Shown one piece after another: positions 50,473 to 52,973 of a stretch of DNA of 64,000 nucleotides. This DNA is from Hoeflea prorocentri (GTDB lineage: Bacteria; Pseudomonadota; Alphaproteobacteria; Rhizobiales; Rhizobiaceae), in assembly GCF_027944115.1 (NCBI RefSeq), contig NZ_JAPJZI010000001.1, positions 1,550,001-1,614,000 on the forward strand, in the 5' to 3' direction. The notes beneath the pieces were generated by a model that did not search any database, had not been told where the DNA came from, and worked only from the letters and a program-made list of their open reading frames with translations. How positions within the stretch are numbered: the stretch's first letter is position 1; each line of letters starts with the position of its first letter. The position numbers were made by a program, and so were the translations under genes.

Positions 50473-50742
50473 TCAATCCGTAGCGCCGGGGTCAGCGCCT
50501 TCTTCACGACGCCCGGTACCGTTTGCCTGTTGTGTCATGGCGGGTCCGGAAGGTTTGCCGAATGCATATTTGAGCATTGAAACGATCAGAAACGAGATTG
50601 CGGTACAGAGAAGGAATACAATGAAAACGGCGCCGATATTCAATGGATGAAGCCAATAGACGAGAAGAAAGGTCAAAAGAACGCCGAGTGCGACGGCGCT
50701 TGGCGATATTGACAACAGGGTCTTTGCCCAACCTGCTCCCAT
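50473..50742 (-). CDS. Small two-helix membrane protein (89 aa), unknown function
   Basis: Two membrane helices (AVALGVLLTFLLVYWL and IGAVFIVFLLCTAISFLIVSML) with short polar ends; the C-terminus is rich in G, R, E and Q. No named family recognised. The GGGGG 6 nt upstream favours ATG 50742; ATG 50748, which overlaps the upstream stop as ATGA, is the alternative. It is coupled to the secreted-protein gene upstream. Confidence 0.65.
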   Translation of the reverse strand: MGAGWAKTLLSISPSAVALGVLLTFLLVYWLHPLNIGAVFIVFLLCTAISFLIVSMLKYAFGKPSGPAMTQQANGTGRREEGADPGATD

Positions 50743-50744
50743 AG

Positions 50745-51596
50745 TCATCCCCCTATTGTTATGACATTTCCGAACATCTGGCCGTAACGGTTGATAATAG
50801 CCTGGATTTTTACCCGAAGTTTGCTCACGGTCAGTCCGTTCTCCCATTGGTCGGACTGAATGTCGTTGACCCATACCTGGAAATGGCTGAGCGCGCTGTC
50901 GTAGTCGTCGACTTGCGACAGGTCCCAGAACAGCATCACCGTTTTATCGCTGCCAATCATTTCGGTGGGTGACCAGGCAATAAGAAAAGGTCCACGACCA
51001 AAGGATTTGTTCAGCTTCTTCCTGGCGGCCTGAATGGCGGTTTGGCCTAGTGACTGATTGTAGTTCCTGACGGCAGCCTCGCACTGCAGCTTCTCATCCA
51101 TCTTGTGGATCGAATTTGCCACATCGTCGGTGATAATCGGCCATACCGTAACAAGTTGGGAAACGGGTGGCACACCCTCTGGCGGCAGTGGCAACGCCTT
51201 CAAATAAGCCCTGCAGATAGCGGTGTGCCGTTCGACTGTTTCAGTAGAGGCGGTAGAGCTGAATGCGATGATCCCGTAGGCCGCATAATTTGCTGGCGGG
51301 TACTGGTTCGGGCCGGCAAAGATTCGTGTCGCTATGCGGCTTGATCCCAATGCCTGATTGAGCGTGGGGCTAGGCGTTCCAGGTGACGGTGAGGGCACCG
51401 CCGGTGCTGAGCCCCCGTCTGTCGGTGCAACCCCGATATCTATGCCGCCATCGACGAATTGGCCAATATCATTTAGCCGGTTCATCCACTTTTCTTCATC
51501 GAACAGGCCGCTGAATCCGAAAGTCTCGGCCCCCGCGTTTGTAGCAGGAGAAATGGAAAGCGATACGACAATCGATATGAAAAATAGCCGAAGCAT
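50745..51596 (-). CDS. Secreted hypothetical protein (283 aa)
   Basis: A signal peptide (FFISIVVSLSISPATNAGA, about 4-22) precedes a proline/serine linker (about 60-80) and a ~200-residue mature domain with two cysteines (AICRAYL and LQCEAAV). GPNQYPPANYAAYGIIAF and FLIAWSPTEMIGSDKTVMLFWDLS stand out as likely conserved strands. I do not recognise the family. It overlaps the small membrane gene, and the pair forms its own unit between the DUF1127 cluster and the tRNA-Leu insertion. Confidence 0.65.
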   Translation of the reverse strand: MLRLFFISIVVSLSISPATNAGAETFGFSGLFDEEKWMNRLNDIGQFVDGGIDIGVAPTDGGSAPAVPSPSPGTPSPTLNQALGSSRIATRIFAGPNQYPPANYAAYGIIAFSSTASTETVERHTAICRAYLKALPLPPEGVPPVSQLVTVWPIITDDVANSIHKMDEKLQCEAAVRNYNQSLGQTAIQAARKKLNKSFGRGPFLIAWSPTEMIGSDKTVMLFWDLSQVDDYDSALSHFQVWVNDIQSDQWENGLTVSKLRVKIQAIINRYGQMFGNVITIGG

Positions 51597-51799
51597 CCCT
51601 GCCACCACCCAAGATGTTAATTAGTATATCACAACTTATGTGGGTATTGAATACTTTGTAAACAGCCTAGGCGTGGAGCCGAATCAAGAGTTGGCGGCGG
51701 TGTTTTCCTGCTCCGTGCAACACGTGTGATGGTCCAAGGCAATTGGAAACCTGGTTGCGTCAACCAGACGGTTATGCTGCGCGCATCAAACAACGTGGC

Positions 51800-51845
51800 T
51801 TGACCGCCATATTACGACTGTGGCACAGGACAGGCTCCTTCTGAA
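51800..51845 (+). promoter_or_regulatory. Promoter region of the interrupted tRNA-Leu
   Basis: CTTGACC with -35 TTGACC at 51800-51805, 17 bp, then GCACAG, 46 bp before the tRNA 5' end. The intact tRNA-Leu inside the insertion has the same arrangement (TTGACC at 52037-52042, 17 bp, GCAAAG, 45 bp before its 5' end), so both copies had working promoters of common descent. Confidence 0.5.
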
Positions 51846-51890
51846 GCGGGCGTGGCGGAATTGGCAGACGCACCAGATTTAGGTTCTGGC
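51846..51890 (+). pseudogene. 5' half of an interrupted tRNA-Leu (anticodon TAG)
   Basis: Acceptor strand GCGGGCG, D-arm TGGCGGAATTGGCAGACGC and the whole anticodon arm CCAGATTTAGGTTCTGG (TAG in a 7-nt loop) are present, then the tRNA sequence stops and unrelated DNA begins. The matching 3' half is at 52919-52973: its CGCCCGC pairs exactly with this acceptor, unlike the acceptor of the intact copy (GCGGGTG), which shows that the two halves were once one gene. Confidence 0.88.
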
Positions 51891-51963
51891 ACCAGATATT
51901 TTCTCTGGCGCAGCTAAATTTCGGCATCCTATTGATTCCGTATTTTATCTCGCAATTTCAATA

Positions 51964-51992
51964 TCTTCGTTAGCGGGAAGTCTTCGTTAGCG
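51964..51992 (+). repeat. Direct repeat TCTTCGTTAGCG x2 near the left end of the element
   Basis: TCTTCGTTAGCG at 51964-51975 and again at 51981-51992, 17 bp apart, about 75-100 bp inside the left junction. Candidate arm-type integrase sites. Confidence 0.5.
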
Positions 51993-52081
51993 TTGTGACT
52001 CTCGTTTGACGCGAGCCTATTGCTGATACACGTACTTGACCCACATCACACTGATATGGCAAAGCCCGCACTTCTATACGT

Positions 52082-52166
52082 GCGGGTGTGGCGGAATTGG
52101 TAGACGCACCTGGTTTAGGTCCAGACGCCGAGAGGCGTGGGGGTTCGAGTCCCTCCACCCGCACCA
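52082..52166 (+). tRNA. tRNA-Leu (anticodon TAG), intact, inside the insertion
   Basis: An 85-nt class II tRNA: acceptor GCGGGTG with CACCCGC, D-arm, anticodon loop TTTAGGT (TAG), long variable arm GCCGAGAGGC, T-arm GGGGGTTCGAGTCCCTC and encoded CCA. It differs from the interrupted copy at compensated positions, so it is a separate allele and not a repair of it. Confidence 0.96.
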
Positions 52167-52178
52167 GATTTATATTTA

Positions 52179-52739
52179 TTAGTCACCGATACGCGGGTGA
52201 CCGTTGTACGTGCCATCGATAGTCAACTCAAAGTCCACACCCCGATGTTCCATCAATGTGGCTGCTTCGCTGCCAGATAGAGGCAAAGTGATCGTAGCCA
52301 ACCGAGTGGGTCTCCTTCGCCCCACGATGCTGACCATTATGTCTATTTCATACTTACCGGCCTCAAACTGAAAATCTTCCCGCAACTTTGACTGCAGAAA
52401 ATGATGGTTCGCGGTAAGTCCATCTGGCCCGATGTAGAGGCCACTGCCACGGGAAAAGTCTCCGGATTCACCGTAACCCCAAACCTCAAACATCCATTGT
52501 TGGTTGTTCCGGCGAACTCGTGCATACATTGCCTCAATGAACTGGCCACGCTTAGATGTACTGTACAGCAACGTCCGCAAGTGTATTTTGGGACAAGCCC
52601 AGGGCACAAAGTCGTATCCGAAATAAACATGTGTCGGAGTTGTCATTGCCAGCCTACCACGGTGCAGAAATACAAACCAAAATGTGCCGATCGAGACAAC
52701 AAGCGATAAAACTGAAATAGGTAGGGCGACGAAATCCAT
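52179..52739 (-). CDS. Membrane-anchored hypothetical protein, cargo of the tRNA-Leu insertion (186 aa)
   Basis: One N-terminal membrane helix (VALPISVLSLVVSIGTFWFVFL, 4-25) is followed by a ~155-residue soluble domain rich in beta-strand pattern (TPTHVYFGYDFVPWACPK, YEIDIMVSIVGRRR, ATITLPLSG), likely cytoplasmic given the R-rich segment after the helix (HRGRL). No catalytic motif or family recognised. It is convergent with the intact tRNA-Leu, its stop lying 13 bp beyond the tRNA end. ATG 52739 is chosen because it starts at the helix; upstream open sequence has no coding character. Base composition is visibly more AT-rich than the backbone. Confidence 0.65.
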   Translation of the reverse strand: MDFVALPISVLSLVVSIGTFWFVFLHRGRLAMTTPTHVYFGYDFVPWACPKIHLRTLLYSTSKRGQFIEAMYARVRRNNQQWMFEVWGYGESGDFSRGSGLYIGPDGLTANHHFLQSKLREDFQFEAGKYEIDIMVSIVGRRRPTRLATITLPLSGSEAATLMEHRGVDFELTIDGTYNGHPRIGD

Positions 52740-52830
52740 AGGTACTGCTAGCAACCACGACGCAGTTGCACAACAGTCGGTTGAGGTCAGCTGTGCTGCC
52801 ACGCTAAGCCACATAAAATCGAAAACTACC

Positions 52831-52869
52831 GTGACAAATCTGTGCCAAGTTGTGCCATGTGTGACAACT
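52831..52869 (+). repeat. Four phased 10-bp repeats (GTGACA/TGTGCCA) near the right end of the element
   Basis: GTGACAAATC, TGTGCCAAGT, TGTGCCATGT and GTGACAACTT start at 52831, 52841, 52851 and 52861: exactly one helical turn apart, about 50 bp inside the right junction. The phasing suggests a row of protein-binding sites on one face of the DNA. Confidence 0.5.
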
Positions 52870-52918
52870 TCTAGGGATTTTGTCTCAATTTTTCATACTG
52901 TTAATCGATGCGGCAATT

Positions 52919-52973
52919 GATTTAGGTTCTGGCGCCGCAAGGCGTGGGGGTTCAAGTCCCTCCGCCCGCACCA
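52919..52973 (+). pseudogene. 3' half of the interrupted tRNA-Leu
   Basis: Starts with the 15-bp repeat, then variable arm GCCGCAAGGC, T-arm GGGGGTTCAAGTCCCTC, acceptor CGCCCGC, discriminator and CCA. Joined to 51846-51890 at the repeat it rebuilds a complete tRNA-Leu(UAG) with all arms paired. Confidence 0.88.

What the first reader, a model, noticed from the sequence alone, without database searches (positions are those of the whole stretch)
51846..52973. Insertion that breaks a tRNA-Leu(UAG) gene and carries a replacement tRNA-Leu(UAG)
One tRNA-Leu(UAG) is split in its anticodon arm. Its halves (51846-51890 and 52919-52973) pair with each other in the acceptor (GCGGGCG with CGCCCGC), and each side of the break has the same 15-bp sequence GATTTAGGTTCTGGC. 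Between them lie an intact but distinct tRNA-Leu(UAG) with the same promoter layout as the broken gene, and one ORF. Integration in anticodon loops normally restores the host tRNA through a partial copy in attP; here the restored function comes from a whole extra gene. That suggests a compact element with built-in rescue of the tRNA it destroys.
Basis: partly seen in the sequence, partly recalled or inferred. Interest (0 to 1): 0.8.

Follow-up and report, generated by a model that had tools for sequence, protein, structure and literature searches.

The report
Vestigial phage-like insert with rescue tRNA
A mobile element cut a leucine tRNA gene of a rhizobium-like bacterium, brought its own replacement copy, and survives only as a one-kilobase remnant that seems to hold the cell's sole working copy; the trick itself is already known from temperate phages.

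Summary
A tRNA-Leu(UAG), 'A', is split in its anticodon loop by a 1,043-bp insert with a perfect 15-bp direct repeat. The insert carries a different intact tRNA-Leu(UAG), 'B', the only intact UAG copy found in this genome, one orphan ORF and, 50 bp inside the right end, four tandem GTG(A/C)CA sites. Such clusters lie by the att sites of phages Lo5R7ANS, RHEph01 and TRX32-1, beside Pasto's tRNA-Leu, and in a same-family element at tRNA-Cys, but in 0 of 30 other tRNA-Leu(UAG) loci. A tyrosine integrase of this group probably placed the insert, and B rescues the destroyed gene. This is published as tRNA-dependent lysogeny (PMC10865867); rhizobial phages do it at a tRNA-Leu with the same core (PMC8631192) and in S. 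meliloti tRNA-Leu(UAG) (PMC11476347). So the principle is not new. Unusual is the near-minimal, integrase-less state. Deleted prophage (favoured) or compact passenger element stays open.

The parts
51876..52918 (.). Inserted unit (1,043 bp, counting one copy of the 15-bp repeat)
   Evidence: Absent from the uninterrupted tRNA of G006 and G007
51846..51890 (+). 5' half of the host tRNA-Leu(UAG) 'A', ending in the left repeat (attL side)
   Evidence: 45/45 identical to the intact gene of G006
51876..51890 (+). Left copy of the 15-bp core GATTTAGGTTCTGGC
51889..51911 (+). Imperfect second copy of the anticodon arm directly inside the left end; 18/23 matches, the five mismatches all inside the 7-nt loop; role unknown
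   Evidence: B's own anticodon arm also scores 18/23; the best match elsewhere in the 64-kb window is 16/23
51800..51827 (+). Promoter-like motif TTGACC-N13-TGTGGCACA of gene A
52036..52063 (+). Promoter-like motif TTGACC-N13-TATGGCAAA of gene B
52082..52166 (+). Intact rescue tRNA-Leu(UAG) 'B'; its anticodon stem lacks the integration core
   Evidence: ARAGORN; 85/85 identical to the native gene of G001, G003 and G005, 84/85 to that of G004
52179..52814 (-). Cargo ORF, 211 codons from the first ATG, probably 186 aa from 52739; modelled as one helix (likely transmembrane, my reading) plus a beta-rich domain; no family
52831..52869 (+). Cluster of four GTG(A/C)CA sites, proposed arm-type sites of the lost integrase
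   Evidence: 4 observed in the right 104 bp, 0 of 2000 shuffles reach 4; densest cluster of the window; similar clusters in related phages
52919..52933 (+). Right copy of the 15-bp core
52919..52973 (+). 3' half of the host tRNA-Leu(UAG) 'A' (attR side)
   Evidence: 55/55 identical to the intact gene of G006

Best explanation
The insert is what is left of an integrative element, most likely a temperate phage or close relative, of the tRNA-dependent-lysogeny type. A tyrosine integrase recombined a 15-bp core in attP with the anticodon loop of the host's only tRNA-Leu(UAG), in the trmFO-tig interval. The core was too short to rebuild the tRNA, so the host gene was destroyed. The element carried a complete tRNA-Leu(UAG) whose anticodon stem differs from the core; it therefore replaced the lost function and could not itself serve as a target. 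The integrase and nearly all other genes were then lost, probably by one internal deletion, leaving attL, the essential tRNA, one cargo gene, the arm sites and attR. Shown: insertion, empty site, 15-bp repeats, B as the only intact UAG copy found, a GTG(A/C)CA cluster like those of related phages. Inferred: integrase in the past, arm-site function, expression of B, essentiality, order of events, phage nature.
For: Empty site 85/85 in G006, 84/85 in G007, also seen in named records L276 and L275. The other tRNA genes hit in G000 are Leu CAG, CAA and GAG. The core TTTAGGT is shared with the attP-like sites of Lo5R7ANS (CAGATTTAGGTTCC), RHEph01 and TRX32-1 (CAGATTTAGGTT) and RHEph21 (TAGATTTAGGTT); Lo5R7ANS, RHEph01 and RHEph21 carry a whole tRNA-Leu(UAG) with a core-less stem, and TRX32-1 has a tRNA-Leu annotated at the same place. 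Clusters of at least 3 GTG(A/C)CA within 45 bp lie by the att sites of Lo5R7ANS, RHEph01 and TRX32-1, beside the tRNA-Leu of Pasto, by a G260 element at tRNA-Cys, and in the window, but in 0 of 30 other tRNA-Leu(UAG) loci from 28 genomes. The same trmFO-tRNA-tig locus holds a T7-like prophage in G206. Papers: PMC8631192, PMC10865867, PMC11476347.
Against: No integrase or recognisable phage gene is left in the insert. The ORF family was found in no phage record. RHEph21 and the G206 stretch have no such cluster, and the window's left end has none. The position of B (191 bp inside the left core) matches neither Lo5R7ANS nor the Paadamvirus layout. The halves show no mutation against G006, so if most of the element was lost, it was lost fast. 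B is also the native form in other congeners, so it need not have come from a phage.
Confidence: 0.8

Rival explanations
1. A compact, non-autonomous element of about 1 kb (attP with arm sites, rescue tRNA, one cargo gene) that was integrated recently by an integrase supplied in trans, not a deleted prophage.
For: Both halves and both repeats are perfect, so the insertion looks recent while no trace of a larger element remains; proposed arm sites, rescue gene and cargo are all present.
Against: No second copy with the same cargo: the ORF occurs in 5 of 394 family genomes counting this one, and no tRNA gene was found in the stretches fetched around the other four. One large deletion would leave the same picture. 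Arm-like sites are present at one end only.
Confidence: 0.2
2. The insertion was not site-specific: a transposon with a 15-bp target duplication, or illegitimate recombination.
For: No integrase in the insert.
Against: The repeat search gave one inverted pair (72%), with one arm outside the insert, so no terminal inverted repeats; the break is exactly in an anticodon loop used as attB by known phages (cores) and by the G206 prophage at the same locus; GTG(A/C)CA cluster.
Confidence: 0.04
3. A and B are an old tandem pair of tRNA genes and A decayed by rearrangement, without any mobile element.
For: B stands at the native locus in G001, G003, G004 and G005; the gene trees leave open which form is older.
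Against: Joined halves 85/85 equal to an intact gene with a 15-bp duplication; each of the six congener stretches L067-L072 holds one tRNA-Leu gene only; B lies inside A, not beside it.
Confidence: 0.02

Closest known systems
tRNA-dependent lysogeny (Guerrero-Bustamante and Hatfull 2024, PMC10865867; abstract, passages and Discussion seen)
   Same: [quoted passage not shown] putative arm sites flank attP
   Different: There the prophages are whole phages of Actinobacteria; here only about 1 kb without integrase is left, in a Rhizobiaceae genome
vB_RleA_TRX32-1 / RHEph01 (Paadamvirus) prophages of Rhizobium (PMC8631192; passages seen)
   Same: 12-bp core CAGATTTAGGTT in a host tRNA-Leu, and a whole phage tRNA-Leu without that core
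   Different: Phage tRNA lies about 1.1 kb from attP on the other strand with the integrase between (RHEph01); here B is co-oriented, 191 bp from the left core, and no integrase remains
Lo5R7ANS-like prophages of S. meliloti AK21 and RU11/001 in tRNA-Leu(UAG) (PMC11476347; passages and section 2.3 seen) and phage vB_MloP_Lo5R7ANS (KM199771)
   Same: Same isoacceptor broken, replacement gene on board; one of the phage's two GTG(A/C)CA clusters has almost the window's spacing (12,10,8 against 11,10,9)
   Different: Phage genome of 45.7 kb; its tRNA lies between arm cluster and core
Canonical tRNA-targeting islands (Islander, PMC4383910; passages seen)
   Same: Anticodon-centred crossover in a tRNA gene
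   Different: There attP carries the missing part of the tRNA; Islander also rejects candidates without integrase or under 2 kb, so this element would be missed

Membership tests
tRNA-dependent lysogeny element | Integration in an essential (single-copy) host tRNA gene | tested here: met
   Split gene and empty site; B is the only intact Leu(UAG) found in G000 by BLAST. Essentiality itself not tested
tRNA-dependent lysogeny element | Short common core that does not rebuild the tRNA | tested here: met
   15 bp; neither junction gives a tRNA by ARAGORN
tRNA-dependent lysogeny element | Same-isotype tRNA on the element | tested here: met
   B, 52082-52166
tRNA-dependent lysogeny element | Tyrosine integrase encoded by the element | tested here: not met
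   None of the 7 PF00589 places of the genome lies in the window
tRNA-dependent lysogeny element | Arm-type integrase sites flanking attP | tested here: inconclusive
   Four candidate sites at the right end, none at the left; binding not tested
tRNA-dependent lysogeny element | tRNA needed for lysogeny (genetic test) | not testable with these tools
   Needs a bench test
Canonical tRNA island (half-tRNA in attP) | Junction rebuilds the host tRNA | tested here: not met
T7-like (Autographiviridae) prophage | Single-subunit RNA polymerase and phage genes | tested here: not met
   The 1,043-bp insert has no room for the polymerase, and its main ORF has no Pfam family and no convincing PHROGs family; only att features resemble such phages

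The most novel reading that the evidence does not exclude
The insert is a minimal mobile cassette in its own right: attP with arm sites, a rescue tRNA that is immune to re-integration, and one cargo gene, moved by integrases of resident phages in trans. Such an element would destroy an essential gene, replace it at once and make the host depend on it.
Probability: 0.18. Interest if true: 0.65.

Novelty: new member of a known kind. Interest (0 to 1): 0.36.

Why it matters
It shows what tRNA-dependent lysogeny can leave behind. Once the element decays, the imported tRNA is the host's only copy and cannot be lost, so a host tRNA gene has in effect been replaced by a version without the phage's target. 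Remnants of this kind are short and lack integrases, so the Islander filters would reject them (PMC4383910). The case also adds another Rhizobiaceae lineage to a mechanism whose authors asked how common it is outside the actinobacteriophages.

Tried and rejected
Searched the insert ORF in viral contigs, genome contigs, phages, Pfam, PHROGs, NCBIfam and PADLOC: nothing convincing (best PADLOC E 0.0016, for one homologue only). It has relatives in 4 other of 394 family genomes and 11 plasmid records, one of which covers at least 80% of it; no tRNA lies in the stretches fetched around the four genome copies. Its predicted fold (mean pLDDT 76) has no PDB match at E 0.001 or less by the call's own count.

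Idea that B at the native locus of G001, G003, G004 and G005 is itself a domesticated phage tRNA: not supported. No A halves were found within the 20-kb loci and no arm cluster within 1.5 kb of those genes. The tRNA-tig linkage is old in the order, so B may simply be the native form there. Gene trees differ on where G000 sits (tig with G007, support 0.98; trmFO unresolved; G006 is not in the tig tree).

Source of the element in the own genome: seven PF00589 places, none in the window; the core-plus-RCC pattern occurs in G000 only at the two ends. L098 and L120 (3' half) and L107 (5' half, in frame with an integrase-like end by my reading) look like canonical half-tRNA attP sites. The Lo5R7ANS integrase gave 2 loci in viral contigs, one the phage itself, the other (L330) with no tRNA and no core in the stretch held.

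Plasmid and phage blastn with the split gene and insert: in the rows shown at most 19% of the query is covered, as expected from tRNA genes alone; most records were not listed. G322 has a related integrase but no tRNA-Leu core in the 30 kb read. Of the 8 other genomes with the three-site pattern only G260 was followed up; the reversed control pattern matched in 2 of 297.

Full report
What is there. The window is C1:1550001-1614000 of a 5.04-Mb genome in two contigs. A tRNA-Leu(UAG), called A here, is split at 51890/52919. Its halves share GATTTAGGTTCTGGC, and ARAGORN recognises only the gene inside the insert, called B, at 52082-52166. Joined with one repeat copy, A is 85 nt and equals the uninterrupted gene of G006 at all 85 positions and that of G007 at 84. 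In the congener stretches read the tRNA lies in the interval between trmFO/DUF1127 genes and tig, as far as each stretch or contig reaches; in G006 the LuxR and P450 genes follow it as in the window, in G007 the P450 gene. The insert is therefore a 1,043-bp insertion into one gene. The window was not compared with other strains of its own species; the searches gave none.

What B is. B differs from A at 11 of 85 positions. It is identical to the native tRNA of G001, G003 and G005, one change from that of G004, and identical over the 52 nt that remain at a contig end in G002. Within three mismatches it occurs in 5 of 394 family genomes, all of this genus; G002 is not counted there because its copy is cut. 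B is the only intact Leu(UAG) gene among the BLAST hits in the genome; three further hits are Leu CAG, CAA and GAG. Upstream of both A and B stands TTGACC-N13-T(A/G)TGGCA at -46, its only two occurrences in the window. The same layout precedes A in G007, and nearly the same (N12, at -45) B in G001, but not A in G006 or B in G003, G004 and G005. So B probably came with its promoter from a congener. A general sigma-70 scan gives no promoter for either gene.

How it got there. The broken stretch is an anticodon arm, and the same core is the attachment site of known rhizobial phages. RHEph01 and TRX32-1 carry CAGATTTAGGTT, RHEph21 TAGATTTAGGTT, and Lo5R7ANS CAGATTTAGGTTCC. ARAGORN finds a whole tRNA-Leu(UAG) in RHEph01, RHEph21 and Lo5R7ANS, with the stem CTTGG-TTTAGGT-CCAAG in place of the core; TRX32-1 has a tRNA-Leu annotated at the corresponding place. 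B likewise has CCTGG-TTTAGGT-CCAGA. In this family the same trmFO-tRNA-tig locus is occupied in G206 by a T7-like prophage (RNA polymerase 38-40% identical to those of RHEph01 and Lo5R7ANS; integrase 36% to Lo5R7ANS, 30% to RHEph01). There the rescue is the canonical one: host 5' half plus phage 3' half give an intact gene, and the displaced host 3' half stands before tig.

Arm sites. The right end of the insert holds GTGACAAAT-CT-GTGCCAAGT-T-GTGCCATGT-GTGACAACT at 52831-52869. In the right 104 bp there are 4 such sites, against a shuffle mean of 0.17 and 0 of 2000 shuffles reaching 4; it is the densest cluster of the 64-kb window. Lo5R7ANS has two clusters of four, one on each side of its attP core; RHEph01 and TRX32-1 have clusters of three at the end of the integrase gene; Pasto, whose attP I did not locate and whose tRNA-Leu reads UAA by my reading of the sequence, has four beside that tRNA. 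RHEph21 and the G206 stretch have none. A search of 297 family genomes with a three-site pattern gave 9 genomes, the reversed control 2; only G260 of the 8 others was followed up. It has a cluster of four between a related integrase and a tRNA-Cys. Of 30 other tRNA-Leu(UAG) loci (28 genomes; G006 and G007 counted twice) none has a cluster within 1.5 kb. I take these as arm-type sites of the lost integrase; the motif was found by eye in the window and the phages and then counted, so it is partly post hoc, while G260 and the 30 loci are independent checks. That they bind integrase is inference.

What is left and what is not. The insert has one reading frame of note, 211 codons; the three homologues aligned start at about its Met 26. 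It is a rare accessory gene: besides this genome, 4 of 394 family genomes and 11 plasmid records, among them Rhizobium and Yersinia ruckeri; no phage record. The model shows one N-terminal helix plus a beta-rich domain. No integrase gene remains. Directly inside the left end lies an imperfect second copy of the anticodon arm that differs only in the loop (18 of 23; B's own arm also 18; next best in the window 16). I cannot explain it.

Mechanism and status. Most likely a temperate phage or relative integrated by its own tyrosine integrase, destroyed A and supplied B; an internal deletion then removed nearly everything else. B cannot then be lost, and it has no core. The perfect state of both halves argues for a recent insertion, so a compact passenger element integrated in trans is the main rival.

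Known kind. Guerrero-Bustamante and Hatfull (PMC10865867; abstract, passages and Discussion seen) define tRNA-dependent lysogeny by a short core, no rebuilt tRNA and a phage tRNA of the same isotype, and show genetically that the tRNA is needed. PMC8631192 (passages) reports a whole replacement tRNA-Leu in Rhizobium prophages integrated at a 12-bp motif in a host tRNA-Leu. PMC11476347 (passages and section 2.3) reports Lo5R7ANS-like prophages that inactivate tRNA-Leu(UAG) in two S. meliloti strains and replace it. PMC12429752 (passages) recalls that case. The window therefore is a vestigial new member. I found no report of an integrase-less remnant of this size in paper searches, of which I read mostly listings; that is weak evidence of absence.

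Noticed in passing
L068 (G003), L069 (G004): The native tRNA-Leu(UAG) is inverted relative to the neighbouring trmFO/DUF1127 and tig genes compared with G001, G005, G006, G007 and the window, and three other genes (amidohydrolase-like, solute-binding-like and LysR-like by my reading) lie between it and tig.
   Followed up: partly
L261/L259 (G206:C1:881584-909430): T7-like prophage at the same tRNA-Leu(UAG), rescued the canonical way by a phage-supplied 3' half that differs strongly from the host one.
   Followed up: partly
L273:18000-19200 (G260:C9): Related integrase with a four-site GTG(A/C)CA cluster beside a tRNA-Cys gene; apparently another integrative element of the same integrase group.
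   Followed up: partly
window 51889-51911: Second anticodon-arm-like sequence with only the loop changed, directly inside the left end of the insert. B's 3' end also reads GCACCAGATTTA, which is shared with A's anticodon arm.
   Followed up: partly
window 50473-51608: Two reading frames (133 and 287 aa) between the DUF1127 gene and the tRNA with no tblastn match in the congener stretches read and no Pfam family above its cut-off; possibly a further accessory insertion.
   Followed up: no
L107 (viral contig): A 5' half of tRNA-Leu(UAG) that by my reading is in frame with the end of an integrase-like gene, so an attP that would supply the 5' rather than the 3' half.
   Followed up: no
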